The notes under the pieces were generated by a model that worked only from the letters and a program-made list of their open reading frames with translations, did not search any database and was not told where the DNA came from. This document shows positions 9,254 to 28,256 of a DNA stretch of 64,000 nucleotides, piece after piece. The translations under genes and the position numbers were made by a program. Position 1 is the stretch's first letter; each line of letters opens with the position of its first letter. Source of the stretch: Amphirosellinia nigrospora (lineage: Eukaryota > Ascomycota > Sordariomycetes > Xylariales > Xylariaceae); contig SCHM01000001.1 of the NCBI GenBank assembly GCA_004123355.1, forward strand, positions 6,892,193 through 6,956,192. The letters are read 5' to 3'.

Positions 9254-12200
9254 TTAATTTTCGCTGCGCACCATAAGCTCTTTCATGTGAGCCCTTCTCC
9301 ACACACCGGCCGTCTCGATCATGAAGATCATGTCAGCGCGTCGATAGTGAAGGCGATGCGCAATCGCCACGACGTTGATACCCCGCGTCGCCTCTCTAGC
9401 CCGTCTTGTAGCAGTCGTTCGGACTCTGCATCTAGGGCGCTCGTCGACTCGTCAAGGAGCAGCAGTCGTGGTTTCCGCCGAGTGTCGAGCGATCGAGAGG
9501 CGCTGTCTTTGACCGCCCGAAAGCTGGCCGCCATTATTCCACATTGTGTATATACCCGTCAGGTAGTGCCATGATTGTGTCGTGTATGTTCGCCAACTTG
9601 CAGGCCTCTTCGATCTCAGCGTCCGATGGTTCAATTCCCGGCTGGCCCCCGAGGGCCACGTTGAAGCGAATGCTTCCGTCAAAGAGCACACTGTCCTGCG
9701 GTACGAGCCCGATATCATCTCGGAACACGGGCTCTTTCCTGGAGCTGATGTCAAATCTTCCAACCTCAATGGAACCGGACTCCAAGCTGTACATGCGCTC
9801 TAATAACGATATGATGGTTGACTTGCCAGCACCACTGGTCCAACAAGGGCGCAGAACTGGCCTGGCGGGATATCGATATTGAGCCCTTTAGAACTTGGCG
9901 ATTAGGCCGAGCTGGGTAAGAGAATTTGACTTCATTGAATTTGACAGCAAGGCCCTGTCCAGGTGCCGATGTTAATGTCCTCGACTCGACCATGGCTTCC
10001 ATGTCATTCGCTTTGCCTGTTGTGTTTGATGATCCAGGTCGATAAGATCGCAGATACGGCCTACAGCTCGGCCTGCCCGGGTGATTTCTGGCGCGAGAGT
10101 AAAGAGTTGTCCCCAAAGCTGAGCGCTCACAAGAAGTGAGATTAGAACGATGAAGAACTGTGCCTGAGTGTACAATCCGAGACGATTTGCTTCGACCCCA
10201 CCAATAAAAAGTGCATAAAGGAGGTTAGAGATGCTCATGGACAATGCTAGGAAGCAGTTAGACCAGATAATAGAGCGCGTCACTTCCCGGCGAGGGGCTT
10301 CAAGGGAACGCTGGTACGTCCCAAGAATTTCCTGCTCCAAGGAAAGCGCTGCGACGGTCTTGATAGAGTTGACAGCTTCGACAGATATTCCGACCGATTT
10401 CTCAAAAGCTTTCCCATGCTTCTCGTCAAATCGGGCGACAATCCATAATTTCATAAACCCTGCGCCAAGCATCAAAGGCACAATGGCAAGCCCAACGATT
10501 GCAATCTTCCATGCGATAATGTGAGAGAGAATGATTGCACCGATGAAGTTGACAAAAATTGAAAACATGGTCCCCGATGATTGACCCCGTCAAACTCCCA
10601 ATGGCAGCTGTGTCGCTTGTATAAATGAGAGTAGTGACGACGGTGTTCGACTTTCCGATTGATGCCATTGAAGATCTTGATCGAATAGTGAACGGAAAGA
10701 CAACACTCTGATGACATATAAGATCTTTTCGGCCACCAGACCGAACACGGACCAGCTAGTTCCATTAGCGAGGAACTCGGCGATAGCGAGAACGAAATAT
10801 AGCAAACCAAAAAAGCTGCCTGCGGCTCTAATTGCTTGTTCCGTATTGCAAGGACTTAGGGCGTTAATTGTGTTGCCGAAGATTAATGCCGAGCCAAGAT
10901 ATGTACCACCGACAATGAGGGATCCAAAAAAGGCAATGAATAGCCACAATAGATGAGGCCGTGTAAATGACCCCAACCTTTTCATGGTCGACCAGGCTGG
11001 TTGGTTAGATTCCCTTTCCTTTAAATCCTTAATCTGCTTGCCCGATTCGGCTTTCTCGGCTGTCCCTCTCACATCGTCATCAACAAAGGAACTTGGCTTT
11101 GTCTTCATGTCGTCTGATGATTTAATTTCCTGTGTAGTGCTGATACTGGAGGTTTCGGATCCCATATTCTGCAACCTGACTAACGCAGCGTAGTCGGCGT
11201 TCTTCGTCATCAGATCGCTATGATTGCCTTCCTCGATGACCCTACCATTACGCATAACCACGATTTTATCCGCATTCTTGACAGTGGCAAGCCGATGTGC
11301 AATTGATATTACCGTCCTTCCTACTGACGCCTTCTCAATTCCGGCTTGAATGCGCTGCTCACTAGCTGAGTCGAGGGAGGAGGTCGCCTCATCAAGTACC
11401 AAAATCCTCGGATCCTTCACTAGTGCCCTAGCGAGAGCCACCCTCTGTTTTTGGCCACCACTGAGGAGATCGCCATTGGGCCCGACGACGGTGCCAAGTC
11501 CGAATTCAAGATTGCCCACGAAAGCGCCAGCATCAGCCAGGTCAACAGCATGCAAAATCATCCGAGCGACCTTGACAGCCTCATCTCCGTGCGGTTCTGC
11601 CGCCTTAAGAATATCTTCGCCACTGCAGATAGCTTCTGCAATTTGCGACAATTGGTTTCCAAGCACCGTGGGTTGAATAGCTCTGTGTTCTGGGCGAGAG
11701 GAGTTCACTAAGCCGAGAGCGATGTTCTCAAGGACCGATCGATTCAGCAACATAGGATCTTGTTGAACAAGGCCAATATAACTTCTCAATTGACGCACGT
11801 TGATGTCTCTTAATTTTCGTCCATCTAAGAACAAATTACCTTGATCGGCATCGTATAATCGAGTGACCAGGCCAGCAATTGTAGACTTCCCACTACCAGA
11901 TAAGCCCACGATTGCTGTGGTTTTTCCGGCTGGAAACTGCAGAGACACGTCTTGGATGACGGGGACATCAGGCCTAGAAGGATATGTGAATGCCACATTC
12001 TCTAGACGTACATCGCCTTCGAATACTTCAGGCGAATATGCCGACGCTTCGTTTGAGTCCTCGATTGTGCCATCAATCTTCGACCGGCGGTCTATATCTG
12101 TTCTAAGTTTATCTAGAGTTGCCGCGCAGAACTGAATATCTGCAGGTAAGGCGAAACTTGACTGATAACAATAGAAGCTACACGCCAATTAGCACGAGTC

Positions 12201-13339
12201 CTAAAGTAGCAATTGAGTTTTCTCACCGTCCACAAGGATGAATATGATGGTGTAAATCGATCCAACGGAGGTCCCTTCTTCACGACCCGCAACAACATCT
12301 GCGATCGTGATACTTCCTTGCCAGTATGCGAGGCCACAAGCAGCGAAAGCGATGAAGTATAACAGACCGGCCTGAATTGCAACTGCAATGGCCTTTTTGA
12401 TATTTTCTTTCTTCGCTAGGCTCAGCTTAGCTGCAAACTTAGCTTCGAGCCTATCATTGGCCCTGAACGCATGGATAACCATAACGTTAGATAAACTTTC
12501 GAGTGCAATCGAAGAGGCCGAAGCAACATGCTCCGACGCCAGGGTCGCGTATTTTCCAACATAGTGGCCACCACCAAACGTCATTATAAGGAATGCGGGA
12601 ACAAGAGACACGAGAATGCCGGCAAGCTTCGGGCCCTTAATGAAAGCGACGATATAAGACGTGATGAATAGTGACAGGACACCGAGGTACACCCCAACCT
12701 TCTCTGATGTCCCATTTTTAATCGTAGCAATGTCAGCACTCAGTCGCGATGAGACCTCGCCGGCTGGCCGTTTATCAAAGAATGAGACTTCTTGGCGGAG
12801 CAGTGACCGGAGATACTTCTCTCGAAGTCTGTGTGCAAGCCTCTCCCCAAAAAGGTTCCAACACACGCTATATAGGTAGATGAGGGCAAACTGCGCCAAT
12901 GCGGCAGCAACGACAAGGAGAATCTTCTGATTGATAGCTGTCTGATAATCCTCCGGCGAGTCTGATACAGGGGTCCCCTCGGCCGCGCATGTTGCCCCGT
13001 TGAGGTCATCGACAAGCTCTCCGAAGATGATTCCGAGAATAGGAAATGGTATGCCGGCACCAATTGACGTAATGGTGCCAATCACGAGCAACGCATAGTC
13101 TAAAGCAGTGGGTTCGGCATAATTGAGCAAATGGAAATAGCGAAAAATCCTGTCAAAAACCTAAGAAATTTAGTGACCAAGAAGGTTTTATCTATCACGT
13201 GAATACATACCTTTGACACTTTTGAAGGCGTACCATTATGTTCGCCGTCAGTTTTACCAGCGTTGCTGCCCAAATCAGGGCTCGGAGGCACGTCGCCGGC
13301 CTCTTGCCTCGACGACGAACTGGTGCCCATCTTGATCAA
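9254..13339 (-). CDS. P-glycoprotein-type ABC transporter (ABCB), siderophore-cluster type
   Basis: This is a full-length TMD1-NBD1-TMD2-NBD2 exporter of about 1300 residues in the plasma membrane. The start is MGTSSSSRQEAGDVPPSPDL at 13330 (or an in-frame ATG at 13339). Introns are seen at 13161-13210 and 12178-12226. NBD1 has Walker A GLSGSGKST, signature LSGGQKQR and Walker B ILVLDEATSSLD. NBD2 has the remains of Walker A (SGAGKST), signature LSGGQRQR and Walker B LLLLDESTSALD. The first half is nearly continuous. The second half changes frame about eight times, for example at the NBD2 Walker A near 9837 (one base short) and near 10573 (an extra G). Aspergillus fumigatus has a similar ABC gene (sitT) inside its siderophore cluster. 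Divergence from a siderophore MFS gene and two iron-type GATA sites between them support such a role here. It is either an error-laden intact gene or an early pseudogene. Confidence 0.88.
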
Positions 13340-13901
13340 CGAATGCGTCGCCGGTTCCCGCGATTATTCACCGGCTATGTAGAAAAGAACGAAGAAAACT
13401 TAGGGGAAAGCGAGGATAGGTACATGATAAAATGATCTAGATTTCGTAAAATTTGCCCAGGTACCATGCTGCAGCAACACCGAGAGGATCTTGTGCTCCA
13501 TGGATACCCACATTCCGTGATGAGCTTGCAGGCTCAAGCATGTAATGGCCATACTTCTAATGGAAGCGGAGCCCAGCATATTGGATACATACAGAACCAT
13601 CTACGGTAGCGGGATTATGGGGATAGGTGGTACGACGCTACACTAGACGGATGAATAGCATCGTGTTGGGCGGATCTCTGTCTTGTCTGCTAGTCTATGT
13701 AACATGTTGACATGTATAACTGCTGAGCCCACATAGTACAAAACTATACCTCAGGGTTCAAGACGGACAAGATTTCGCCCATGCCCTGTCGCCGAAAACA
13801 GGCGATGCACGATGAGGTCGAGGGCCACAGCACTAAGCTTGGTGCGGGAGGAGATGGCAGAAGGACTGGGCATAGATGAACTTGGCGTGCAGAATCGTCG
13901 G

Positions 13902-13910
13902 ATCAGATAA
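13902..13910 (+). promoter_or_regulatory. Iron-repressor GATA site (ATCAGATAA)
   Basis: This is an exact match to ATCWGATAA, the site bound by the SreA/Sre1/Urbs1 family of GATA repressors of siderophore genes. The two bases before the core are GG. It is about 570 bp upstream of the ABC start and 550 bp upstream of the MFS start. Confidence 0.7.
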
Positions 13911-14099
13911 GATGATTTTCAGGCTACTAGGGGTTCCATCGGCGGCACAGTGAAATACATGGAGTAGACTAAGTAACACCTGCATCTAAGTACATGTAGC
14001 ACTCTGGGTCTGTCCGGGTACCCCACGAGTACTTTCTTGCCTTAGGTACGTACATAACAAATAATTGGCCCAAAGCGTTGGGTGCGACGGGGTCTCGGC

Positions 14100-14108
14100 T
14101 TATCTGAT
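14100..14108 (-). promoter_or_regulatory. Iron-repressor GATA site (ATCAGATAA)
   Basis: This is the second exact ATCWGATAA match in the divergent promoter, 350 bp upstream of the MFS start. Unlike the other seven, it lacks a G directly before the core. Confidence 0.65.
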
Positions 14109-14193
14109 GGCGCTAGGGCGAAAGGGGATTTGGCCGATGAGAAGCGTTTCAGTTGAGGGCTGAGCGAGGTATTAAGGCTTTTTCCGACAGGAG

Positions 14194-14218
14194 CCAGCTA
14201 CCTACAGCAGGTAGCTGG
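14194..14218. repeat. Perfect 10-bp hairpin
   Basis: CCAGCTACCT and AGGTAGCTGG are perfect inverse copies around a five-base loop (ACAGC). It lies 240 bp upstream of the siderophore permease start. A dyad factor site or a short hairpin is possible. Confidence 0.75.
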
Positions 14219-14457
14219 AGCTTGTAAGCCTCAGCATTCCCCCTCTTCCAACTAACCAGGTGCTCTTACAAATATACCTAAGGTAGACGAAAAGTCATCC
14301 CACGTCTCCACCATTCCCAGTGTGACCCGTGAGTCGGCAGCGTGGATCAGCCCAATCAGCTGACACGTCACCGCGACCCCCGTGGCTGTTGGCAGCACGC
14401 GGCCAAATTAATACAGCGTACCGTATTAATATTTCACTTACCCAAGGTTGTTTCGAC

Positions 14458-16492
14458 ATGTCTAAAATCCATCGACGTGTTATCACGTCTGTCAGCATGC
14501 AAGACCTCAGCGGCCACAACAGTAGCAGTAGCCAGGCGCCGCTGCTAAGCCCTTCCTCCGGCAGTAGTGATGGCGAGTATGAGAGCGATGTGAGAGCCAG
14601 CTACGGGTCGACTTCCGGGAAGAACGATGCCATTATTACAATAGCCCCCCAGAGTGACGATGAGGAAGGTGATGAATATGATGAAGACCCGCAGCGCGCT
14701 CTCGGAAACTCTGCCTCACATGGCGGCGTCCAACAAGCAGATGCCATAAATCAAGTCTGGTCGAGAGCTGCGCTTTTGACTGCCTACTTATTGTATGCTG
14801 ACAAGTTCTGATGTACGGACCAGATCACGGTTGACAGTATTCCAGTATCTTTCTGTGTAATTTCACCAACGCCCTCCAGTGGCAGGTCATCTTCAACTTG
14901 ATGCCATATGTTGTCAGCGAGTTCTCGTCCCATTCGCTGATACCCACCATCGGCATCGTTTCGAATATTCTCAGCGGCGTGCTCAAGCTCCCGGTAGCCA
15001 AGATCATCGACTCCTGGGTCGAGCCCAAGGATTCGCATCGACGACCCTTCTTGCTGCTCTAGGATTATTGCTTATGTCTCTCTGTCGGGATGTTCAAACC
15101 TATGCGGCTGCACAGGTGGGTGTCACCGGGCAAACCCTTGAAGTCTTTCGTACTCATTGATGATATAGGTCATATATCAAGTAGGAATTAGTGGGTTTTC
15201 TTATATTCTCGAAGTTATCGTCGCCGACACATCCTCCCTAAAGAATCGGTCCCTCGCCGTAGCCTTCAGTTCTACTCCATATCTCGTGACCACCTTTATT
15301 GGACCCGTCATCGCTAGCTCTTTTACCGAAAACGGTCGTTGGAGATGGGCGTTTGGCGTCTCATCGGTCTTCCTCGTTTTGCTATCTATGCCACTTTTTT
15401 ATATCTTAAATTTGAATATGAGAAAGGCAAAGAAGTTGGGCCTACTCCAAAAATCTACCAAGTCGGAACCTTGGACGACCACAAAGATTTACAACTATCT
15501 AATTGACTATGATGGTAAGGTCACGAGTGCTTTACAATATCACATGCCATGCTAATCGACATAGCCATGGGGATGTTACTGCTTAGTGCTGGCATGACGT
15601 TCATACTAGTCCCATTCTCCCTCACTAGCGAATCCACCCTCCAAGACTAGCCTCAACGCCTACACGGCCACTCTTTTTCTAGGATTCGCGTTGGTTATTG
15701 CATTCGGCCTTCACGAGAAAAACACCCAAAAGCCATTCATAGCATTCTCGCTCCTGTGTTCCCGTAACGTCGCTGGCGCATGCCTACTTTCCGTGACAAT
15801 CTTTGTCGCTTACTTTGCCTGGGATGGTTACTATACATCCTATCTCCAGGTTGTTCATGGCCTGAGCATTACTCAAGCTGGGTATATCGGCCAGATTTAC
15901 AGTATCGGGTCGTCTATATGGGGGCTTGTGGTAGGGTACTTGATCCGAAGGTCTGACCGGTTCAAGTGGCTGGCCGTGGCAGCTCTGCCTGTGCATATAA
16001 TCGGGCGCCCTGATGATAATCTTTCGACGACCTGATACTCATATCATATTGGTTATCATGTGTCAGATCCTGTTGACTATTGGCGGGAGCACACTTGTCA
16101 TTTGCGAGTCGATGGCGGTCATGACAGTTGCACACCACGCAGAGATTGCCTCTGCCATGGCTATTCTATCTCTAGCTACATACATTGGGTCGGCGATGGG
16201 GAGTTCACTCAGCGGCGCCATTTGGAACTCCACGCTTCCTGGGGCCCTTGCCGCGTTGCTCCCCGACTTGAATCCTGCCGAACTAGGCAGTATTGCTTCT
16301 GATTTGAAGAAACAGCTGAGCTATCCGATGGGGAGTCCGACGCGCTCGGCTATTATAGCTGCTTATGCGAATGCACAAGCTAAAATGTGCATCGTCGGTA
16401 CTCTGGTCTCGCTTCTCGAAATTGGGGCAGTCTTAATATGGAGGGACAGTCAGCTCAGCCGATCTAAACAGGTCAAGGGGACAGTATTATAG
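14458..16492 (+). CDS. MFS siderophore-iron permease (Sit1/MirB/ARN family)
   Basis: This membrane permease takes up or exports siderophores by proton symport. The start at 14458 is MSKIHRRVITSVSMQDLSGH, followed by an acidic, serine-rich cytosolic N-terminus. Three introns fit: 14793-14845, 15116-15168 and 15515-15564. Family landmarks are NALQWQVIFNLMPYVVSEF, HSLIPTIGIVSNILSG, VIVADTSSLKNRSLAVAFSS and WRWAFGV; 12-14 membrane helices are expected from the family. Three single-base frame changes are seen: near 15016-15018 (GGG where GGGG would restore a WGRAQGF-type motif), near 15640 and near 16005. The gene ends KGTVL at 16492. It faces the ABC transporter across a promoter with two iron-type GATA sites. 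Family assignment is firm; the transported siderophore is unknown. Confidence 0.92.
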
Positions 16493-17552
16493 CGTGTCCG
16501 AATGAAGACCGCTTTCGTCCCTGCCCCTATTGGGACTTAATTGGATAAAGTAGAGATTAATTATAGACAGGATTTTTTATTTATAGTTAATAGATATAAA
16601 AGTTCACTGTAAGTATGCTTTTATGATGCAAGCATTGTTCGAACGCGGTACTAGCTTGAAATATTGCGGGTGGCCGTGGAAGAATAGGGTAGGCCCCTAA
16701 GACGGCCAAATCAATAATGTTTGGATATGAGTGATGCCATTTGAATTGACTGATGGAGTGTCGGGAAAAGTACCTTAAACTGGTATTATTCTAGTCGACT
16801 AGCCAAGGTGAGCTCTGTACTTGGGTACTTTGAGGTACCATAGCCACTGTGTGTTTATTGGTTTGCACTATCCGATCTCGCATATCTTGTACTAGCCATG
16901 CAGGATGGGTCGCGATCTTTTTAATCTTATCTGATCCGACGATTAGATTTTTCTCGGCCCACACATCATCTCGTCCCCTATATTCCCGGTAATCCCAGCT
17001 TACAGATCCAGCTTGTCGGGTGAAAACTCCTTAGCCCTTAGCGAGAGCCCAGCAACGACGGAGTAGTCTCTACTTTAGTTTTACATGTTTCTTTAGTCTC
17101 CCCTTTTTAGTTTCGCGTTTTTGTTGAAGTACCCAAGTTACCGACTACGTAATACCATATCAAAATGTCGACGGCGGTCATATTCTTAGCTTATAGAAGT
17201 CAAAGCCTCTCATCCCGAAGCGAGCCGCTGGATGGAGGGTCTAGTAATATTCACTATTCAACTACCAATCTTGGCCTAGCACGGGTGAGTTCATCCGTTT
17301 GAAATACAGGCCCCCATCACGCAGCATTCATGCCATGGCGTGTTTACTGGGGCCTCGTCGGTCTGAATTCGACTGTGTGAAGAGGGACAGTGGAGCGCAA
17401 AACAAATGGAGAAATACCTCTTCGCGTCATGTTTGGAAGAGCCAGCCGAAAGCTAGCAGACTACTCTCTGCTGGGCCCCATTAGAAGCTCATATGTCGTC
17501 GTGATCCCGGAGTGGTCATTTCTTTACTCATCCCTCAATAATATCGCACATC
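16493..17552. promoter_or_regulatory. MFS-sidI intergenic region
   Basis: This is about 1.06 kb without a recognised gene and includes the promoter of the SidI-type ligase. It contains one exact iron-type GATA site at 16927-16935. Confidence 0.55.
16927..16935 (-). promoter_or_regulatory. Iron-repressor GATA site (ATCAGATAA)
   Basis: This is an exact ATCWGATAA match on the minus strand with GG before the core, about 620 bp upstream of the SidI-type ligase start. Confidence 0.7.
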
Positions 17553-19337
17553 ATGGCTACACAAGAAGTCTTCCAGCCACTTTCATATCGGCCTCAATCT
17601 CAGAGACAAAACCCGTCTATTTTATACGGTCCTGTTGATCCCCATTAGTAGATTTGACACTAGGCGAACTCCTAGATCTACAATGCCAACACCACGGAAC
17701 CCAGGAGTGCATAGTGACACCATGGACGGGGGCCAGGTGGACATACAATGAGCTCAATCAGCAGAGCTCTCAGTTGGCGAGAGCATTGATTTCAATTGGC
17801 ATCGGTGTCGGAGACCGCGTAGGAATAATGGCTGGAAACTGTGAACAGTATGCGGCGGTCTTCTTCGCAGTGGCTCGCATAGGTGCCATACTGGTCATTC
17901 TCAACAACACTTACACGCCGACTGAAGCCCAGTACGCTCTAAAATTCTCAGGTATTTTACTGTTCATTCGTATCGTAATCACGTGTGATAGCTAATAACT
18001 TTTGTAGATTGCAAAGTTTTCTTTACAACAAAGAGAATCGGAAAGGTGGATAACTTGAAACTCCTCGCAGAGATAGCGTCTCAGAAGCAACGTCCAGACA
18101 TCGTAATCTTAAGGGGAGAGTCAGGCCCATACCCGACATACAATGACCTCATCAAGCAGGGACGAAGAATGAGCAACGGTCACTTATATCGGCATGGCCG
18201 AAAAGTCCTGGCCCATAATGTCTGCAATCTCCAATTCACTAGTGGAACGACCGGACTACCAAAGGCGGCGATGTTAACGCACCACAACATCGTTAACAAC
18301 GCCCGTTTCATCGGCGACCGCATGCGTCTCACGCCCGATGATATTCTATGTTGCCCGCCGCCACTTTTCCACTGCTTCGGACTTGTGCTAGGCCTTATGG
18401 CCGTGATCACTCATGGAGCTAAGATCGTTTACCCAGAGGAGACTTTTGATCCTGCAGCAGTACTCCGCGCCATCTCCGACGAGGACTGTACGGCAGTGCA
18501 CGGCGTTCCGGCCATGTTTGACACACTATTCAGTCTGCCCACGCCGCCTGGCTTTAACTGCGATAACCTGAGGACGGGCATAATCGCCGGTGCGCCTGTG
18601 CCTCGGTATCTCATGGAGCTGTTGATCTCGCGCTTCGGCATGACTGAGTTCACAAGCAGCTACGGGCTAACAGAAGCATCACCCACATGCTTCAACGCCT
18701 TCACGGACGACGCCATCGAGAAGCGGCTCACAACGGTCGGAACGCTCATGCCGCACGCGCGCGCCAAGATCGTCGACCATGAAGGCAACATCGTACCGGT
18801 GGGCGCGCGCGGCGAGCTCTGCATCGCCGGATACCAGCTGCAAGCCGGGTACTGGAACAACTCGGAGAAGACGGCCGAGGTGATGATCCGCGACGAGGCG
18901 GGCGTGTTATGGCTGCACACGGGCGACGAGGCCGTGTTCGACGACCAGGGCTATTGTACCATCACGGGCCGCTTCAAGGATATCATCATCCGAGGCGGCG
19001 AGAACATATACCCCCTCGAGATTGAGGAGCGGCTCGTGGAACACTCGGACATCGCACGCGCCATCGTCACGGGCGTGAAGGATGCGCACTACGGCGAGGC
19101 CGTCGCTGCGTTTCTGCAGAGCGAGAGCCCTGCCGGCGCGCGACCTACGGACCAGCAAGTCAAGGAATGGGTTCAATTGAAGTTGGGCAGGCATAAAGCG
19201 CCGGCGCATATTTTCTGGCTCGGGGAGAACGACGTCCCTCTCGATGTCCCCTGACTGGGAGCGGCAAGGTGAAGAAGTTCGAGATGGCACGCTTCGGCGA
19301 AGAAATACTGAGGAAGCAACGCCTAGAGAAGTTGTAG
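17553..19337 (+). CDS. sidI: SidI-type acyl-CoA (mevalonyl-CoA) ligase
   Basis: This is an AMP-forming acyl-CoA synthetase of about 575 residues. SidI in Aspergillus fumigatus activates mevalonate for fusarinine and TAFC side chains. The start is MATQEVFQPLSYRPQ at 17553. One intron lies near 17950-18007 (...GCATACACGCC side to DCKVFFTTKRIG). Motifs are FTSGTTGLPKAAMLTHHN (ATP-binding P-loop), SYGLTEASPT, WLHTGDEAVFDDQGYC and GRFKDIIIRGGENIYPLEIE, then the catalytic lysine region TGSGKVKKFE. Two one-base losses in C runs break the frame: 17640-17643 (CCCC) and 19248-19251 (CCCC). Adding one C in each place joins family-typical sequence (PLVDLTLGELL; PLTGSGKVKK). The C-terminus is -EKL, weakly PTS1-like. 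An upstream iron-type GATA site and a neighbouring sidF support the name over a general fatty-acid ligase. Confidence 0.9.
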
Positions 19338-19682
19338 ACTTGCGCTTGCACATCTTGGGGCTTTTCAGAAGAAGAGAAGAACATAGGGTTTTGCAAGAGA
19401 ATCCGTCCACGGTGCATGACTTGGTCACTACATTTCTGTACGCTTTCACGCTAATCATTTTAGAGTGCATACCATAAGAGGGCATCCCCGACTTCGCATG
19501 TATGGATATATAGGTGTAGATAAGGTTCCAACCTACTAAAGTTTATTATTTAAATATTGAAGGATAACGTCTCGTTTAGGGACTGGAGATATCCATTCCT
19601 ATTATGGTCTTAACCATATATAAGTGACTGCGGATGACATCATCCTAGAAAAGCCTTCTCTTCTTTTCCATTGAGTCACTCA

Positions 19683-20177
19683 TCAAGCACGCCCTCGACT
19701 AAACCAAGGCGTCGTTTTGGCAAGCGATTGGCGGCGCTCACGACGCCGGTACTTGTCGACAGTACTATTATAGTTTCCGCCGGCGCTAGGCTCATCGAAT
19801 AGGGACAACAGTATCCTGTGCTCATTGTCGTGGTAGGCACTACAACACAATGGAGTCAGTTATACCTTTTAAAACATGGATTATGAGGGTTCCAGAAGTT
19901 TCTGGGCATCATCATATCTCACAAAGGAAAACTTGTGCTCTGAAAGTCGTCAAAATAGTGGAGAAATGGTTTCGGGAATTACGCACTACCAGAGCTCGAG
20001 GTGGACTGCGAGCCGCGGACAGAGATTTGTGGCAGAATACATAAGAGCGTTGACCATCTCGAAATGGTCGGGGTTTTTGATGCCGATAACTTGAAGGAAA
20101 CGATGTTGGACGTCCTCATCGACGGCACATGGCGCTCGCACTAGAGAGTCGACGACTAGTTGGAGATCTTCGTCCAT
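19683..20177 (-). CDS. Small two-exon hypothetical protein
   Basis: I do not recognise this gene. Exon 1 runs 20177-19990 and starts MDEDLQLVVDSLVRAPCAVD. An intron at 19840-19989 (GT...TTGTAG, 150 bp) joins in frame to exon 2 (19839-19683), which reads AYHDNEHRILLSLFDEPSAG and ends WFSRGRA before TGA. The total is 114 residues, with an acidic start and a basic, Arg-rich end; no signal peptide or membrane helix is seen. Both exons have normal amino-acid composition and the splice restores one continuous frame, which is the evidence that it is real. It lies convergent to the SidI gene inside the siderophore region. Confidence 0.5.
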
Positions 20178-21170
20178 ATTAATTTATGATGTAATAAGGT
20201 TGGGCTAGGGGACGAAAATTTGAGGTAATGGGGAGTATTTATGATTTCCTAAGGTATTTTTACAAGATAACTAGTGAGTGGAGAGAAAAGATGGTCACTA
20301 GGTGTATGCAGTATCATAGATTCGTGGCTTTATAGCTCTTGAGAGACACCCGAGTATTCAAAACTGCGACAAGGAAAATATACGAGGACACGGACTGTAG
20401 CGAAACATCGGTTACATACAAATTACGCGTGGAGTCGCATCTCTGGCTTTTCTATTAAGGAGTCGTACAAAGAGAAATCTAAAATAAGGCCTCGTATTGG
20501 AGGCGGCAGAGTGTCCTTTATTAATGTTGCAGGTGCTTTTATAAAATTAATATTTGACGCAAAAATATGTCATCAATCTTTTATGACAGACCGCTTGGGC
20601 TCAAGTCAACCGAGGCAATAAATGCAGCTGAAAAATGGTGAGGCAATGATGATGCTCAGTTGTGGTACCCACCCCTTTCATAATTCTGATGACATTTTTG
20701 CGATTCAATGTCCCTCTCTAAAATAAGTAAGAAGCATTAGCGAACTGTGACGTATCTTAATACGACGAGCTTATTTAAAAAAGAGGGTTAGGTTGGCGAA
20801 CCTAAACTCGAAACTCTATTCGGTGCTACCAGCGCACCTTCCCGGTCAAACTGATAATACTATGAATCTCGGCGTTACGAAATATAAATGAAACGATGTA
20901 GTGCTCCAATTGGCCGAATTATTTTGGTTTCATTTGAATGCTTATGCGAGTCACACTCTGTGAAGTTTAGTTCTCGAATTTTCTGCGGAGACTTGCTTGT
21001 TCAGGGCCGAATTATGTCGGCAGTATCTGGTATATCGACATATCTGAAACGTGGCTGCATCTTCTTGTCGCTAATGCAAGCTTAACTCTCTATATACATA
21101 GAAGCAAATACGATGCATTGCCTCGTTCCTGACTTTGCTTATGTTCCTCCTCTCAACGTACTCAAGCATC
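20178..21170. other. Intergenic, no gene seen
   Basis: This is about 1 kb of AT-rich sequence between two minus-strand hypothetical genes. No recognised coding sequence, RNA gene or iron-type GATA site was found. Confidence 0.4.
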
Positions 21171-22170
21171 TTACTCGCTCAAGTCCATATCAGCCGAGCC
21201 AGTATCACTTTCGCAATGATCAGCATGGGGGGTCGGATTGGCTCTAGGTTGTTCAGTGGCCTTTTTTCGTGCCTCTTCCTCACGTTCCTGATGCTCCTGA
21301 AGTACTTGACGTTCCTTGCGTTCCTTCAGTTTCTTCCGGACAGATTGCAGCAACTCTTGGCCGTCCATCAGATCCATCACTTCGCTAATCCCCATGAGCC
21401 CTTGCCTAAAAGCTGCTTCCACGTCGAATGCATAAAGTCGGTCCTTGAGCATGTACTCCATCAACTCAAGGTCAGCATTAAGCTGTGCCCAATGGATAAT
21501 CCCATATGATAGATTGTGTGTCTTGTTGGTGACCCGCTTGGCGATTAGCCATACCATCATGGCTGGAATGCATGCAAGGTTTTCGTGAAGTTGGCATGTC
21601 AAGTAGTCTTGAACCGAGGGTGCGAGAGTCTCGGCGCCTCCCAGCACGCTGTCGTGGATCGACTGGATATTGAGTCGTGCTCTTTCTAGCTTGGTCATAC
21701 TTGGGGATTCTGTGGCGCGAAAGTACTAGTGGAGGGCTGGCGGTAGTCATAGGTGTTGCCATCGTTGCTATTGTTGCGGTTGTCTGCGATGTTGTTGTTG
21801 GAAGTTGTCCGAGAAGCCGTCCCAGCACGCTCCGCTGTTCCCCTTTCCACAAAACCGTCGTACCTATTCTTGTACTTGGGTGCGTTATTGATGCTGTCTT
21901 GGGCCCGATGATACTGTGATGAAGCTACCACGGCGCCGTAATTATGGCTTGAGTACGTGCGCTTTTGGTAACAGGGTGTTTAGCGGGCGAAGGCGGCACA
22001 GTTACTTGCGGAACTAGATAGCTAGTTCGGCCAGAACCAGTCAGAGGAATAGGAGGCTTGGGAGGAAGTTGGGCCTTGCTTGCATCCGGAGGGACCTCGT
22101 TGTAGATGCCGATGGTCGACGGTGACTGCTCCGGAAGCGTGGAAAGTGCTGGTGGTTTGCTCGACATCAT
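21171..22170 (-). CDS. Unrecognised proline-rich, coiled-coil protein
   Basis: I do not recognise this family. The start at 22170 is MMSSKPPALSTLPEQSPST. A proline-rich N-terminal third (PPKPPIPLTGSGRTSYLVPQ) is followed by an Asn/Ser/Tyr-rich low-complexity stretch. A well-folded-looking helical domain comes next (MTKLERARLNIQSIHDSVLG to LMGISEVMDLMDGQELLQSV). The C-terminus is a charged Glu/Lys/Arg coiled coil ending in an acidic tail (SADMDLSE). Two frame changes, near 21955 and near 21710, separate the three parts. The first is consistent with a lost base in an A run. The predicted protein is about 330 residues with no signal peptide or membrane segment. The architecture suggests a scaffold or adaptor, but that is inference. 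Confidence 0.6.
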
Positions 22171-23785
22171 GAATACTAGCGATTAGGTAGTTCGGGTACA
22201 AATAATTTGTGCAACATCTAGATGTTGCTGGAACGATGAAGAATGTTATTAGAAGCGAGTTGGAGTACCCCAAAGTAGCTACAGTTGCCAACCTCAGTTA
22301 TCCGAGTGTCTGCCAGCTTCCAGCCTTCCTGCCTAAGGTAAAGGTCACGATCTTCGTGTAGGCTACCCATAAGGTACAGTATGACGCCCAGCAAAGCAGT
22401 ACTAGCGACCCCAAAGTTGGTAACGATATTTCCGAAGCGGTATGCCAAACAGTAAGATCAGTAAAGCAGAGCCCATCCCTTATTTTCAAGAATTCTTTCG
22501 AAACAAATTGCACCACTAATTATGGATTGTGCGTGTTAACAGAGCTAGCCATTTGCCATGATCACCTCCTTAGCCATCTCTGCTCTCCTAAATTGGCATC
22601 AATAATGCTTTTGGTAGTAGATACTTCATGTGCACCTTTATTAACTCAATAAAATAGGTAGCTGCCTGTGCAAGGTCTATCTATCCGAGCCATATTTTAT
22701 GCAACTGTGATTGAGCTTAACACTGAGAGACTGTCTCCAAATATATACTTGCTTTTCTCGATTTACCTTACAATTGAACGTGTGAGAGATATGACATGAT
22801 GAGCCTGTATTATAAGGCAGAAAGGTACACAGGGCACACACACGCACACGTTCAAGATAAAGAGACTTTCTATAGATAATTAGATAGTCTCCACAGAGCG
22901 GTCAGTGACTTTCGCGAAACAAGTGTGGATGGCTTACTACATATACTGTAAGGTCTTTAACTGATAGCGTCATGAACCCAGTATACGGTACGCAATAGAC
23001 AATTATTGTTGCATGAGGCTCTAGATCTTCCCTCGTGGAGGCTATCTGACTATATACAGGAGTTTCTTTGTCTCACTCTGTGTGTGTGCCTCGTGATGTA
23101 TAAAAAAGCGTCCGAAATTTTAACAATTAGCACTGCATCCTTTACGATGTTGACAGTAGAGTTATGGCTTAGGTTTTATACACGAGGCCAAGTGTGCTTA
23201 CCGTCCTCTTTTAGGCTGAGATGCCTTGATGAACGTATCATCTGGGCAGTGCAGAATCTACTGAACGAGATTGAACTTCATAGACCAATGGTTTCTTAGA
23301 GATATCAGTTACTTAGGTAATATGTGCTCTCTGAGTATCTAGCTAAATCCCATAAATGCTTTTTTTTTTCAGATGCATTTCCTGCTCTGAAATCAACCTG
23401 TATCTCTACGAAGTTGCTACATCGGCAACAAGATGAATCAACATGCCAGACTGTTCCCAAGCCTAATTGTCCTTTGTTCTTCATTTTCCCTTTTCCATCC
23501 CATCAGTTCGTCCACTTCATACCTCAGGACAAGTAAACATGTACCCAAGCCAGCAAATCATATAATAAGTTTGTAGCACCTTTTCCCTCCCAGCTCACAC
23601 CACTTGACTCACACTGAATAGGCTACAATCTACACAATCGCTAGCAAAAAGATTTAGCTAAAAATTGCCCAATAGGGATAGTTATCAAATTAAAATTTCT
23701 TGATGATCATAGCCAGCACAGTGCAGTTATCTTAGCTCCCTGCGACCCAAGTATCGATAGGTGCCGAAGTCGGTCTGGGATTTAG

Positions 23786-23794
23786 TTATCAGAT
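23786..23794 (-). promoter_or_regulatory. Iron-repressor GATA site (ATCTGATAA)
   Basis: This is an exact ATCWGATAA match with GG before the core, the first of a three-site cluster upstream of sidF. Confidence 0.7.
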
Positions 23795-23837
23795 CCGTCA
23801 AAGCTCCACTTCTCTAGCATGACAAACGAGAGGGAAA

Positions 23838-23846
23838 TTATCAGAT
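23838..23846 (-). promoter_or_regulatory. Iron-repressor GATA site (ATCTGATAA)
   Basis: This is an exact ATCWGATAA match with AG before the core, 52 bp (about five helical turns) from the previous site. Confidence 0.7.
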
Positions 23847-23888
23847 CTGACTGCATCATCATCGTCCCCACCCACCAGCCATTTAAAG

Positions 23889-23897
23889 TTATCTGAT
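23889..23897 (-). promoter_or_regulatory. Iron-repressor GATA site (ATCAGATAA)
   Basis: This is an exact ATCWGATAA match with GG before the core, 51 bp from the previous site. The regular spacing of the three sites is notable. Confidence 0.7.
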
Positions 23898-24509
23898 CCG
23901 TGGGTGCATGGCCGCCAAGACACGATCCAACATCTTCCTGCCAATCCTCTTTGCCTTCGGGCGGACTGGATGGGCATACAACTGGCCATTTCATCCGAGA
24001 CGTGTCCTAGCGGTGAAAATTTCTGCCATCTTCCCACCTAGGATGTTGGCTTGTTATGTCTAGGCATGTTGAATGTACCGCTTTAGGGCGGTACCTTCGC
24101 AATACATGGGGAGCTCCAACCTACCTGCATACCCTCAGCGACATTCGGCTTTGGGGCCGAGGTGATGTGCTCTCAGAGTTACGTAGCTCCCTACTACGGT
24201 ATTCGGGAAACTGTCGTTTAGCATGACATGATACAATGACATCTAGTACTCCGAGAAAGACGTCCCATGTACATAGTAGGCTATGAAAACAAGATCTCCA
24301 CTGATGCTCGCTACCTCGGGATACATCGGTAGGTACTGTGAAAGGTTCTATGGAATGCGCGTGCGCTCGTGATAACCCTCTAGTCGCTAGATTTTTTCTC
24401 CATTCGCAAGAGAAGACTAAAAATATTGGCCTTGCACGATCCGTCGAGATTTCTAGTAATTGTCTCACATTGCATTGTTCTCAGTAGTCTCGCTTCTCGC
24501 GCAGTGACA

Positions 24510-25916
24510 ATGGTATCATCTCCTTCAGACAATGAGCTACTCCTTAAGCTCCCACATCCATACCAAACACCATATGGCCTAAGCAAGACTTCACGGACCG
24601 TCGAGGCCTCAATCCCATTATTCCAGATCAAACCCCTTAATACTGACGGCAAGGCTATTACCCTGCCAGAACCCCTTCACAATGACCAACTCTTCTTTAC
24701 CGAGCCGGTAGATCTTAAGTCGAGCGAGCGACCGCCAGAGTCCAATAACACACCATGGGCCGTGCCCGCCGCTCACCCTGCTCGGCTTGGGTCTGGGATG
24801 GCGAGACACCACCTACGCCCGCGCAAGCATGGCTACTCATCTACGTGCTTTTCACTCTGCGGCCAACCATGGAGGGTTTCCGGCTCCTGCTGACGGGATC
24901 TGGTAAAGAAATCCTCTCAGCACAACTCAAGACCGTGCTTCTAGCCATCGACCACCCGATCGCAACAGGCCTCGCCGACGAGCTCTTTGTTCCCCGAAGC
25001 ACCTTCTGGCAGGGCGCCGGATCACCCTTCGGCCCGCGAACGGCGTGGATACCGGAAGACTTGGAGACCATGTCCAAGCCCCTTTCCTCGTACCCCATTA
25101 CGCCTCTCGAGAACGTCATGACGGCGGAGCCTGGACAAGTCCTCACCTGGCACCCGAGACGCCCGGCGAAACCTCGCCCAGGCTCCGTCATCTACAGCCG
25201 CTGGATCCCGCACCTGCGTGAGAACTTCAGTATGGTTGCGCTAGACTGGGAGGACCCGGAGCATCTCCGCCTATTTCACGAGTGGCAGAACGACCCGCGC
25301 GTCTCGCAGGGCTGGAACGAGACGGGCACTCTCGAACAACATAGCGAGTACCTCCGCAAAGCCCATGTAGATCCGCATCAGGTCACAATATTGGCGCGGT
25401 TTGATGACGTGCCTTTCGCGTATTTTGAGGTGTATTGGGGAAAGGTAAGCTCTATTCGTTTTGATTCCAACCGGGAAGACCCTGACGTAGTGCATGTGTT
25501 TGCGCCTGTAATGGTTCATAAGTGAATTGAGCTGACGTGTTCGTGATGTATAGGAAGATCGCCTTGGTGCGTACTACAGCGCGGGTGATTACGACCGTGG
25601 CCGACATTCGCTCGTGGGCGACGTGCGCTTTCGCGGACCACACCGCGTCACGGCGTGGTGGTCCAGCCTTATGCACTTCATCTTCCTAGACGACCCACGT
25701 ACCACTTATATCATCGGCGAGCCCAAGTACACGAATAGCTCGGTGCTGGCGTACGACTTCATTCATGGATTCGGGTTGGACAAGTTCGTGGACCTCCCGC
25801 ACAAGCGGTCTGCTTTCGTGCGGTGCTCGAGAGAGAGATTCTTTCAACTATCGCCTCTTCATGAGAGCGAGAAGGCGGTTGGAGGTACGTTGGTCGGTCT
25901 CTTGCCAAAATTGTAG
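24510..25916 (+). CDS. sidF: SidF-type N5-hydroxyornithine transacylase
   Basis: SidF transfers anhydromevalonyl from CoA to N5-hydroxyornithine for fusarinine-type extracellular siderophores. It is a GNAT-like protein related to bacterial IucB/AlcB acyltransferases. The start is [20 protein letters not shown] at 24510. One intron at 25445-25553 splits EVYWGK from [20 protein letters not shown]. Family blocks are [41 protein letters not shown]-like ([16 protein letters not shown]), [40 protein letters not shown] and [15 protein letters not shown]. The length of about 430 residues fits. One C is missing at 24760-24761, where an added C gives [17 protein letters not shown]. The protein ends LLPKL, a PTS1-like peroxisomal signal; SidF is peroxisomal in Aspergillus. 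Three iron-type GATA sites lie upstream. Confidence 0.93.
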
Positions 25917-26128
25917 ATATAGATTTTCGAGATAAATACATAACATTCATATTTTTCTACTCTGTGGGGTGCTTATATCACGGCTAAAATGTTTGAAATA
26001 TAATCCCTTTGCAAATCTTAGCTACGTAGTGAAATAGTTTTATCTTCAGTAAACCTGCTCAATTCGCCAATGCCCATTTACGTAGAACGCCAATCGCCAC
26101 CCATGCAAAACAACACTCACTCACCTGC

Positions 26129-27518
26129 CTAGGCTGTGATCCCGCCAAGACGAAGATGATCCCAGACAACTGTAACGACATTAGTTACCGCAACTCGACG
26201 TAAGCGAGCTGTAGATTAGAGAACTTACTTCTAAACCCCAAATCTTCCTCGAAGAATATCTGCATCACCTGCGGGCCGTAGTTCATGCCCTCGGTGCCGC
26301 CATACGAGAGGCCGTTCTTACCCACAGCCAATCCAATCATGGGCGGGATCTCCGGAAGCCGGACGAAGTCTGGTTCCTGTCTTGCAGCCGCCGCAACATG
26401 ATTTGATGGATGTTGGAGCCGGCGATCTTGCCCCGTACAGCGCACCACCGCAGCGCTTGATGCCCGACCAGTGGATCATGTCTCCAATGGCGAAATGCGA
26501 CTCGGCGTTGGGGACGCCCGCAGGCAACTGCAGGGTGGGCTGGACGTTCACGTACCCGTCGCTGTCGAGGGCATCGCGGGGCAGGTAGCTCGAGGACGGT
26601 ATGCCGTTTGAAATGGCGGTGATGACCTCGCTCACGACCATCTTGTGGCCGTTGGTAAATTCGACTTCGTAGAGCAGAGACCCGTCGGCGTTCTTGATGG
26701 GTATACTGCTCGCCAATCGGTGGTTCAGGAGTACCTCGACGCCGGACTGCTCTGCAAGCTCGAGTGCGCAGTCCTTCACCATGTCTGGCAGTGGCTCAGC
26801 AGATAAGAGCTTGCCCCTTGAGTGTGCCAGAGTGACTTGGACGCTCGGCTTTGTGTGCTTCAACTCGGTAGCCATCTCAATCCCAACAGCACCTATAGAG
26901 GCGATTAGCATCTCTAAAGCTATCACACTGATGAGTGATACTAACCTCCGCCTACGACGAGCACTGGTGCGGTACTGTTGAGCACTCTGTCGCAGTGCGC
27001 TCCGACTTCCGCAAGATATGCCTCTCGGGTCAGCGCTTGCGGAACAACGGGCCATGTTCTCCGCAGACCAGTGGCGGCGACGAAGAAGTCGTAGCTCTCC
27101 TCCCTCATCTTCTGGGTTTTGTGCTCTGAGATGGTGGCCGTCCTGTTCTCGCAATCGACGTTGGTGACTGTGCCTTGGACGAAAGTGACGTTGGGACGTT
27201 GTAGCCTTTTGACGTCTTTGTAGTCTACCAGGCTTTCTCTGCGTAGTCTCTAGAAGCCATGGCTAATGGCGAGCCGATTATATGGTCTGGTGATCCGCAT
27301 CAGCATGTTGAATGAGTAAATAAAACGAAGCATTTAGCAAACATACAGTATCCATCGCGCTCGTCAACAATGGTTATGTCAACAGATATGGGCAAATCGA
27401 GGGCGTCGCATTTCTCTAGGAGGTTGACCGCGGCCGAGAGGCCACCGTAGCAGCCACCCGCTATGAGGACGCGGTACTGACACGCTGCGATCGGAGTGTT
27501 CATAATGTCTGTCGTCAT
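26129..27518 (-). CDS. AIF2/AMID-like FAD-dependent NAD(P)H oxidoreductase
   Basis: This is a pyridine-nucleotide-disulfide-type flavoprotein of about 400 residues. The start at 27518 is MTTDIMNTPIAACQYRVLIA, followed by the FAD-binding GGCYGGLSAAVNLLEK. Introns fit at about 27290-27350, 26893-26945 and 26170-26228. The second dinucleotide fold reads VLVVGGGAVGIEMATELKH, and the second FAD contact is SHFAIGDMIHW. The C-terminus, after the last intron, reads VWDHLRLGGITA. Frame changes occur near 27228 (one G short; WVDYKDV expected) and twice near 26400-26440. AMID/AIF2 proteins reduce quinones or iron-bearing acceptors with NAD(P)H. The two iron-type GATA sites upstream (28158, 28248) and position beside sidF suggest iron-regulated expression, perhaps in siderophore-iron reduction; that role is inference. 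Confidence 0.85.
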
Positions 27519-28157
27519 CTTCGCTGGTGTTTGGGGTATGGTCTAGCAGGTAATAGATCAAACAGAAACACGGGGGAAAATATTCTTATGGTAGATTTAG
27601 ATTGGCACTCGATTCACGAACGTTTCGCGAGCAGGCGGTGTGTCCCTTTTCAAAGTCCGGGAGAAGGTATTCCTATGATGGCTACCAACTCCTCCTCGGT
27701 CCTAGAAAGCCGTCAGCGCCCACGTAGACAACTAATAGTTCCAATAAACAGGGATGAAAACGACCCGGAGCTACGAACCGGAATTGTCTACTATGGGGTA
27801 CCTAGGGCACAGTAAGAGATAGCTTGGCCTCTGGGATGCCACTAATCCCAAACGTTTGCGAGACATAGCAATCAGTGATCTAGATGATGTATGTACGGTA
27901 CTCGTGCGCTACATAGTGCGACCTATTGCGTTCATTATGCCGATGTCGCCCGGTGGGTATGCGTAAATACGCATCTCCACGTAAGTTAGTGTAGCTATCA
28001 ACTCCTTTCCTTGAAAATTATAGTAAGGGGACAAAAAGAGGTCAGAAGTAAGGGTAGATGCACCTACGGGGGCGTATTCCAAAGATTACTTACTTACATT
28101 AGACTAGTTTCACAAGAATCGCAGTGTGTGAAACCCGCCTGTCAAAATTTTGAGTAG

Positions 28158-28166
28158 ATCTGATAA
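28158..28166 (+). promoter_or_regulatory. Iron-repressor GATA site (ATCTGATAA)
   Basis: This is an exact ATCWGATAA match with AG before the core, about 640 bp upstream of the AMID-like oxidoreductase. Confidence 0.65.
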
Positions 28167-28247
28167 CAAACAGCACACAACACATCCGAAAATCACGCAG
28201 TAAGCGGCAAGATGCCGGAGTGTACAAAGACAATTGTGGGGAAAAAG

Positions 28248-28256
28248 TTATCTGAT
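28248..28256 (-). promoter_or_regulatory. Iron-repressor GATA site (ATCAGATAA)
   Basis: This is an exact ATCWGATAA match with GG before the core. It is in opposite orientation to the site 90 bp away, making an inverted pair. Confidence 0.65.

What the first reader, a model, noticed from the sequence alone, without database searches (positions are those of the whole stretch)
13902..28256. Eight exact iron-repressor GATA sites mark a siderophore gene neighbourhood
I find eight copies of ATCWGATAA, all between 13.9 and 28.3 kb and all in intergenic space: two between the ABC and MFS genes, one before sidI, three before sidF, and two upstream of the AMID-like oxidoreductase. About one copy is expected by chance in the whole 64 kb at equal base frequency. 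This is the consensus of SreA/Sre1/Urbs1 repressors. The sites group genes of different families into one predicted iron-repressed regulon: exporter, permease, acyl-CoA ligase, transacylase and flavoprotein.
Basis: partly seen in the sequence, partly recalled or inferred. Interest (0 to 1): 0.85.

Follow-up and report, generated by a model that had tools for sequence, protein, structure and literature searches.

The report
Iron-repressor sites in siderophore gene cluster
Eight exact copies of a known iron-repressor DNA site sit in front of five neighbouring fungal genes for making and moving iron-scavenging molecules, a real but already known kind of iron-controlled gene cluster; one member, a flavoprotein of unproven role, is worth testing.

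Summary
Confirmed, and of a known kind. The window looks fungal. ATCWGATAA occurs 8 times, all between 13,902 and 28,256, in four intergenic stretches; 0 of 100 shuffles reach 8, nor does any of the other 7,559 letter permutations. Plain HGATAR is not in excess in three of the four promoters. Seven of 8 sites carry the 5' G of the Histoplasma consensus (G/A)ATC(T/A)GATAA. The genes: a full-size ABC transporter, an MFS permease, an acyl-CoA ligase (sidI-like), SidF (7.3e-66 to solved SidF) and an AIFM2/FSP1-like (AMID) flavoprotein. Histoplasma groups the same kinds of gene in an iron-regulated cluster with the same site. Differences: no NRPS or ornithine monooxygenase among all 247 ORFs of 75 aa or more; and the sites at 13,902 and 16,927 share 21 exact bases. 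Binding and iron response are inferred; no genome is held for a genome-wide control. Frames are broken inside and outside the cluster, so assembly error is likelier than decay. Most novel open reading: the flavoprotein reduces ferrisiderophores inside the cell.

The parts
9331..13330 (-). full-size ABC transporter (two membrane and two ATPase parts), SitT/ABC1-like by position; frame broken
   Evidence: Pfam ABC_membrane 1.3e-51 (12204-13160), ABC_tran 4.3e-29 and ABC_membrane 1.5e-09 (10593-12188), ABC_membrane 1.6e-16 (9975-10589); second ABC_tran 1.5e-09 (9537-9887). Both ends are my readings.
13902..13910 (+). SreA-type site ATCAGATAA; core of a 21-bp repeat at 13893-13913
14100..14108 (-). 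SreA-type site ATCAGATAA (the only one of 8 without G at -1)
14459..16492 (+). MFS transporter, candidate siderophore-iron transporter; frame broken
   Evidence: Pfam MFS_1 6.8e-11 (15169-15552), and below the gathering score 1.4e-07 (15610-16032) and 0.00047 (14835-15059); DHA2/EmrB-type NCBIfam matches far below their cut-offs; no PDB sequence hit for 15610-16032
16924..16944 (-). 21-bp element AATCGTCGGATCAGATAAGAT containing the SreA-type site at 16927-16935; identical to 13893-13913 (+)
17554..19338 (+). acyl-CoA ligase, SidI/SID4-like; frame breaks near 17.64 kb and 19.25 kb by my reading
   Evidence: Pfam AMP-binding 2.8e-24 and 6.1e-63, AMP-binding_C 2.4e-10; best NCBIfam match PRK12583, 1.5e-123, below its cut-off. 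The name SidI rests on neighbours.
23786..23794 (-). SreA-type site ATCTGATAA
23838..23846 (-). SreA-type site ATCTGATAA, 52 bp from the previous
23889..23897 (-). SreA-type site ATCAGATAA, 51 bp from the previous, same orientation
24510..25916 (+). sidF, hydroxyornithine:anhydromevalonyl-CoA transacylase; ends PKL (PTS1-like); an intron near 25.44-25.55 kb is my reading; frame break near 24.76 kb
   Evidence: PDB 7qf6 SidF 7.3e-66; N-terminal piece 1.5e-08 to 8kd8 SidF; Pfam Acetyltransf_8 in two pieces; C-terminus
26130..27518 (-). AIFM2/FSP1-like (AMID-like) pyridine-nucleotide flavoprotein, counterpart of Histoplasma OXR1 by position; frame broken
   Evidence: Pfam Pyr_redox_2 2e-07 and 3.3e-06 in two pieces; PDB AIFM2/FSP1 entries 7e-09 to 3.2e-07 for one piece, none for another. 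Ends are my readings.
28158..28166 (+). SreA-type site ATCTGATAA
28248..28256 (-). SreA-type site ATCAGATAA; shares 16 bp CGGATCAGATAACTTT with the site at 23889

Best explanation
This is the extracellular-siderophore neighbourhood of an ascomycete, repressed in iron-replete cells by a SreA/Sre1-type two-finger GATA factor. When iron is plentiful the repressor binds the quasi-palindrome GATCWGATAA (one finger on WGATAA, the other probably on the opposed GATC half) in four promoter stretches and shuts five genes: a SitT/ABC1-type ABC transporter, a Mir-type MFS permease, the SidI-type ligase, the SidF transacylase and an OXR1-like flavoprotein. When iron is scarce the repressor leaves and the genes are expressed together. 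Shown here: the sites, their excess, their promoter positions, the gene families and the SidF identity. Inferred: that a SreA orthologue exists in this fungus, binds these sites and represses, which finger takes which half, and the substrates of the transporters.
For: 8 exact sites against about 1 expected, all in four promoter stretches. HGATAR is not in excess in three of four promoters (3, 1, 13 and 9 found; 3.45, 3.25, 7.13 and 7.2 expected) while ATCWGATAA is about 7 to 14 times the window's rate, the pattern reported for the SreA regulon. 7 of 8 sites are GATCWGATAA, fitting the Histoplasma (G/A)ATC(T/A)GATAA that Sre1 was reported to bind in vitro. Flanks of the 8 sites resemble each other more than those of random positions in the same promoters: summed extension reached in 0 of 40,000 draws, and in 37 of 40,000 with base -1 masked. 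The gene kinds match Histoplasma SID3, SID4, OXR1, ABC1 and an MFS gene (MFS1 outside the cluster, MFS2 inside it in one strain), reported as iron-regulated. SidF by 7.3e-66. Mutating the SreA site in A. fumigatus ftrA removes iron repression; FgSreA occupies ATCWGATA promoters in Fusarium.
Against: No binding or expression data. No genome, so no genome-wide density and no proof of a SreA gene. No sidD, sidA or sidH counterpart was found in the window, so the cluster is incomplete. The sidF promoter shows 13 HGATAR against 7.13 expected, so that promoter is not clean for the argument. By my reading the frames are broken in all five genes as sequenced. With bases -1 to -3 masked the summed flank similarity is only marginal (1,486 of 40,000 draws). 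CCAAT, AtrR-type and SrbA-type motifs show no clear excess. In Scedosporium the mir gene of the comparable cluster did not respond to iron starvation, so membership in a cluster does not guarantee regulation.
Confidence: 0.87

Rival explanations
1. The sites serve another GATA factor (nitrogen AreA/Nit2-type or light-response), and the link with iron is only by gene neighbourhood.
For: HGATAR, the core of the site, is called the recognition site of fungal GATA regulators in general; AreA/Nit2 are recalled.
Against: The excess is in the extended form, not in HGATAR, in three of four promoters; the 5' G in 7 of 8 fits the Histoplasma consensus; the genes are siderophore genes.
Confidence: 0.06
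2. The cluster is a decayed relic: sidD is gone and the reading frames are broken, so the sites are leftovers.
For: Frames are broken in all five genes by my reading, for example near 10.6 kb (ABC; profile positions 1-102 and 117-272 in two frames 42 bp apart) and 24.76 kb (sidF); no NRPS, monooxygenase or enoyl-CoA hydratase family in the 247 ORFs of 75 aa or more.
Against: The same kind of break occurs outside: an ADH gene (profile 1-51 and 51-104 in adjoining frames near 7250) and citrate synthase (profile 2-141 and 133-211 in overlapping frames near 35.73 kb). Breaks inside and outside point to assembly errors. 8 sites are exact, and the domain matches are strong (6.1e-63; 7.3e-66).
Confidence: 0.07
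3. The sites are a chance or low-complexity artefact.
For: The sites lie in intergenic DNA, which is AT-richer in parts (one search shows GC 0.44-0.45 in the 20-24 and 28-32 kb bins).
Against: 0 of 100 shuffles; 1 of 7,560 permutations, the motif itself, and Markov order 1-5 expectation 0.68-1.56.
Confidence: 0.01
4. The operator is composite: the flank CGG / AATCGTCGG is read by a second factor, so the working element is longer than the SreA consensus. This refines the best explanation and does not exclude it.
For: Sites 13902 and 16927 share 21 exact bases; apart from short tandem repeats it is the only exact repeat of 18 bp or more in the window; 0 of 40 order-3 simulations reach 21 (maximum 19). 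CGG precedes 5 of 8 sites.
Against: Only one pair shares the long form; it could be a small copied segment. No CGGN12CCG (AtrR-type) in any of the four promoters, and CCAAT is near expectation.
Confidence: 0.15

Closest known systems
Histoplasma capsulatum SID cluster (SID1, SID3, SID4, NPS1, OXR1, ABC1, with MFS2 in strain G186AR; PMC2275787, passages and Discussion seen)
   Same: transacylase, acyl-CoA ligase, oxidoreductase, ABC and (one strain) MFS genes in about 25 kb; (G/A)ATC(T/A)GATAA at least once in each 5' region
Aspergillus fumigatus SreA-regulated gene clusters (PMC2610380, passages and section 12 seen)
   Same: ATCWGATAA over-represented while HGATAR is barely so; sidF and a siderophore transporter in one cluster
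   Different: there sidF lies with sidD and sidI with sidC; no EstB- or SidJ-like esterase was recognised here, though no search was aimed at them
Scedosporium apiospermum sidD cluster (PMC5932178, passages seen)
   Same: sitT, mir, sidF and sidI in one cluster, sidH elsewhere
   Different: sidD and sidL are inside that cluster and not in this window; the word oxidoreductase does not occur in that paper's main text
Paracoccidioides siderophore cluster (PMC4144954, passages seen)
   Same: RATCWGATAA upstream of the cluster genes except sidD; mirB inside
   Different: includes sidA; the word oxidoreductase does not occur in that paper's main text

Membership tests
SreA/Sre1/Urbs1 regulon | extended GATA site in the promoters | tested here: met
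   8 sites in 4 promoter stretches
SreA/Sre1/Urbs1 regulon | extended form enriched, plain HGATAR not | tested here: met
   three of four promoters show no excess of HGATAR; the sidF promoter does, 13 against 7.13
SreA/Sre1/Urbs1 regulon | motif rarer in other promoters genome-wide | tested here: inconclusive
   0 sites elsewhere in the 64-kb window; no genome held
SreA/Sre1/Urbs1 regulon | binding by, and iron repression through, the GATA factor | not testable with these tools
   needs ChIP and transcript data
Histoplasma-type siderophore cluster | SidF orthologue | tested here: met
   7.3e-66 to PDB 7qf6
Histoplasma-type siderophore cluster | acyl-CoA ligase gene | tested here: met
   AMP-binding family; orthology with SidI/SID4 not tested
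Histoplasma-type siderophore cluster | ABC and MFS transporter genes | tested here: met
   substrate not testable
Histoplasma-type siderophore cluster | siderophore NRPS and ornithine monooxygenase in the cluster | tested here: not met
   no such Pfam family in any of the 247 stop-to-stop ORFs of 75 aa or more (40; 81, 6 of them repeats; 132; tally). Exons under 75 aa were not scanned.
Histoplasma-type siderophore cluster | oxidoreductase orthologous to OXR1 | tested here: inconclusive
   AIFM2/FSP1-like; no OXR1 sequence compared
peroxisomal SidF | C-terminal PTS1 | tested here: met
   frame ends LLPKL; PKL is listed for SidF of 4 of 5 Sordariomycetes and 1 of 2 Leotiomycetes
Eurotiomycete-type SidI | N-terminal PTS2 | tested here: not met
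   no match in three forward frames of 17150-17800
Sordariomycete/Leotiomycete-type SidI | C-terminal PTS1 | tested here: inconclusive
   the frame after the break ends EKL, not a listed PTS1; the sequence is noisy there
AMID/AIFM2/FSP1 family | pyridine-nucleotide flavoprotein closest to AIFM2 among solved structures | tested here: met
   6 of the 7 PDB sequences at E up to 1 are AIFM2/FSP1, 7e-09 to 3.2e-07; the seventh is an NADH:ubiquinone reductase at 0.18. Another piece had no hit.

The most novel reading that the evidence does not exclude
The AIFM2/FSP1-like flavoprotein at 26.1-27.5 kb, with two SreA-type sites upstream like its siderophore neighbours and matching Histoplasma OXR1 in position, is a cytosolic NAD(P)H-dependent reductase that frees iron from imported ferrisiderophores. 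[quoted passage not shown] a 2021 review credits yeast Fre3p at the plasma membrane with siderophore reductase activity (PMC8781417, passages), so the gap is the intracellular enzyme.
Probability: 0.12. Interest if true: 0.75.

Novelty: new member of a known kind. Interest (0 to 1): 0.35.

Why it matters
It adds a fungal locus in which the SreA-type operator and the siderophore gene kinds go together, and it shows again, as in Histoplasma with OXR1, an oxidoreductase grouped with siderophore genes, here of the AMID/FSP1 family. That pairing gives a concrete candidate for the intracellular iron-release reductase that a 2023 review calls unidentified in fungi. The 21-bp shared element suggests that the working operator may be longer than the published 9-10 bp consensus.

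Tried and rejected
Genome-wide control: not possible because no genome is held; replaced by shuffles, permutations and Markov expectations. Co-regulator motifs: CCAAT 18 in four promoters against about 14 expected, TCANNCCA 5 against about 2.6, CGGN12CCG 0 against about 2.8: no clear signal; the single RTCAYSCCAY in the window (14294) lies in the MFS promoter but one hit is not evidence. My first test of flank similarity let random positions overlap and was replaced. Solved-structure searches of one MFS piece and of one oxidoreductase piece gave nothing. Decay of the cluster was considered and rated low because non-cluster genes are broken in the same way.

Literature: of 31 papers holding at least 4 of the 5 terms AMID, siderophore, sidD, oxidoreductase and gene cluster, 15 were listed, and none of the fungal siderophore papers among those 15 holds the word AMID. 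A search for the motif letters gave 10 papers, of which only PMC10294635 is on fungal siderophores. PMC12840751 (Fusarium NPS6) holds AMID-like once, but the passages shown did not include it. Papers on Metarhizium, Blastomyces, Histoplasma peroxisomes and Neurospora AMID were seen in passages only and do not change the verdict. The library holds open-licence papers only.

Full report
What is there. Pattern search confirms eight exact ATCWGATAA copies and no others in 64 kb. Three controls agree that this is not chance: dinucleotide shuffles (mean 1.16, maximum 4, 0 of 100 reach 8), Markov models of order 1 to 5 (0.68 to 1.56 expected), and all 7,560 distinct letter permutations of the same pattern (mean 1.03; only the pattern itself reaches 8). 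The 29 one-mismatch copies do not gather in the region. So the excess is in the exact form.

Where they are. Working from open reading frames and Pfam/PDB matches of separate pieces, the sites lie in four promoter stretches: between the divergent ABC and MFS genes (13902+, 14100-), before the acyl-CoA ligase (16927-), before sidF (23786-, 23838-, 23889-, spaced 52 and 51 bp, same orientation) and before the oxidoreductase (28158+, 28248-). Distances to my start codons are about 350 to 770 bp. The starts are sequence readings and may shift. The nearest other gene models, an unknown gene at 21.2-22.2 kb and a feruloyl-esterase-like gene at 29.9 kb, are about 1.6 kb from their nearest site, so I assign the sites to sidF and the oxidoreductase.

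What the genes are. The ABC protein has two membrane and two ATPase parts. The MFS protein matches MFS_1 in three pieces, one of them above the gathering score, with weak DHA2/EmrB-type matches. The ligase matches AMP-binding at 6.1e-63 and is nearest to the PRK12583 acyl-CoA ligase group. The transacylase matches the solved SidF of PDB 7qf6 at 7.3e-66, and its N-terminal piece matches SidF entry 8kd8 at 1.5e-08. The oxidoreductase is nearest to AIFM2/FSP1 at 7e-09; that AIFM2, FSP1 and AMID are one protein is recalled. SidF ends in PKL, listed for SidF of 4 of 5 Sordariomycetes and 1 of 2 Leotiomycetes but 0 of 9 Eurotiomycetes, and no PTS2 was seen at the ligase N-terminus. This hints at a Sordariomycete or Leotiomycete; it is an inference, and the ligase C-terminus (EKL) does not fit the expected PTS1.

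What the sites are. In A. fumigatus HGATAR is just slightly enriched in SreA-regulated promoters while ATCWGATAA is 5.4-fold enriched (PMC2610380 section 12). Here HGATAR is 3, 1, 13 and 9 against 3.45, 3.25, 7.13 and 7.2 expected, and ATCWGATAA is 2, 1, 3 and 2 against 0.14, 0.13, 0.29 and 0.29 (the expectation is the window's own rate, which includes the sites). In Histoplasma the consensus is (G/A)ATC(T/A)GATAA, and Sre1 was reported to bind it in vitro (PMC2275787, citing a paper then submitted).

Something beyond the consensus. The sites at 13902 and 16927 share 21 exact bases (13893-13913 and 16924-16944). Apart from short tandem repeats, and with words of one or two letters left out, it is the only exact repeat of 18 bp or more in the window. 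In 40 order-3 simulations the longest non-simple repeat was 19. Sites 23889 and 28248 share 16 bases. CGG precedes 5 of 8 sites. Flank similarity among the 8 sites exceeds, in sum, all 40,000 random draws; with base -1 masked 37 of 40,000 draws reach it, with bases -1 to -3 masked 1,486 of 40,000. So G at -1, and perhaps CGG, is supported; anything further rests on one pair.

Comparison. Hwang and colleagues found seven iron-regulated Histoplasma genes, including SID3 (sidF orthologue), SID4 (acyl-CoA ligase), OXR1 (oxidoreductase), ABC1 and MFS1; all but MFS1 lie in about 25 kb, and MFS2 lies inside the cluster in one strain. The present locus has the same five kinds of gene. It lacks the NRPS and the ornithine monooxygenase: all 247 stop-to-stop ORFs of 75 aa or more in the window were scanned with Pfam (40 at E 0.001; 81, of which 6 were repeats, and 132 at E 0.01; tally), and no condensation, carrier-protein, ornithine-monooxygenase or enoyl-CoA-hydratase family appeared; AMP-binding appeared only in the two ligase pieces. 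Exons shorter than 75 aa are not covered, and the genes may lie outside the window. Scedosporium also has sidH away from its sidD cluster.

Assembly quality. By my reading all five genes change frame at least once without room for an intron, e.g. sidF near 24.76 kb (SidF residues 29-102 in one frame, 98-341 in the next) and the ABC gene near 10.6 kb. The same is seen in an alcohol dehydrogenase (ADH_N 1-51 and 51-104 in adjoining frames near 7.25 kb) and in citrate synthase (profile 2-141 and 133-211 in overlapping frames near 35.73 kb). Errors of assembly explain this better than decay of one cluster. I report the breaks and mend nothing.

Mechanism. Shown: sites, excess, positions, gene families. 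Inferred from named precedents: repression by a SreA-type factor in iron-replete cells. Mutation of the SreA site in A. fumigatus ftrA abolished iron repression (passages), and FgSreA occupies ATCWGATA promoters in Fusarium (passages). Against a simple equation of cluster with regulation, the mir gene inside the Scedosporium cluster was not significantly induced by iron depletion (passages). I rate the explanation 0.87.

Open reading. [quoted passage not shown] A 2021 review describes release by a reductase for coprogen and ferrichrome families as one of four mechanisms, and siderophore reductase activity of yeast Fre3p at the plasma membrane (passages). Neurospora AIF and AMID mutants keep normal respiration (passages), so the role of fungal AMID proteins is open. 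An AIFM2-like flavoprotein with SreA-type sites amid siderophore genes is a fair candidate for an intracellular reductase; nothing here tests it, and I give 0.12.

Noticed in passing
window 7249-7252, 10583-10626, 24758-24773, 35719-35743; by reading of overlapping ORFs also ~59.64-59.71 kb and ~63.3 kb: Reading frames change without room for an intron in genes inside and outside the cluster, which suggests indel errors in the assembly.
   Followed up: partly
window 13893-13913 (+) and 16924-16944 (-): 21-bp exact repeat around two of the sites, the longest in the window that is not a short tandem repeat.
   Followed up: yes
window 23786-23897: Three sites in the same orientation spaced 52 and 51 bp, close to five helical turns.
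   Followed up: no
window 29735-30758 (+): Feruloyl/PHB-depolymerase-type esterase (PDB 8jh8 2.1e-30; NCBIfam 4.4e-12 below cut-off), about 1.6 kb from the nearest SreA-type site; two overlapping frames near 30.4 kb.
   Followed up: partly
window 21174-22182 (-): Apparent gene between the ligase and sidF with no Pfam match for two pieces and no NCBIfam match for one, about 1.6 kb from the nearest SreA-type site.
   Followed up: partly
window 14294-14303 (+): Only RTCAYSCCAY (SrbA-like) match in the window, about 160 bp before the MFS start; may be chance.
   Followed up: no
window 17166-17290 (+): ATG-led open stretch ending at a GTGAGT upstream of the ligase, a possible first exon that would put the site about 230 bp from the start.
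   Followed up: no
window 32721-33239 (-): RNase H domain ORF (2e-15), cellular or transposon-derived not decided.
   Followed up: no
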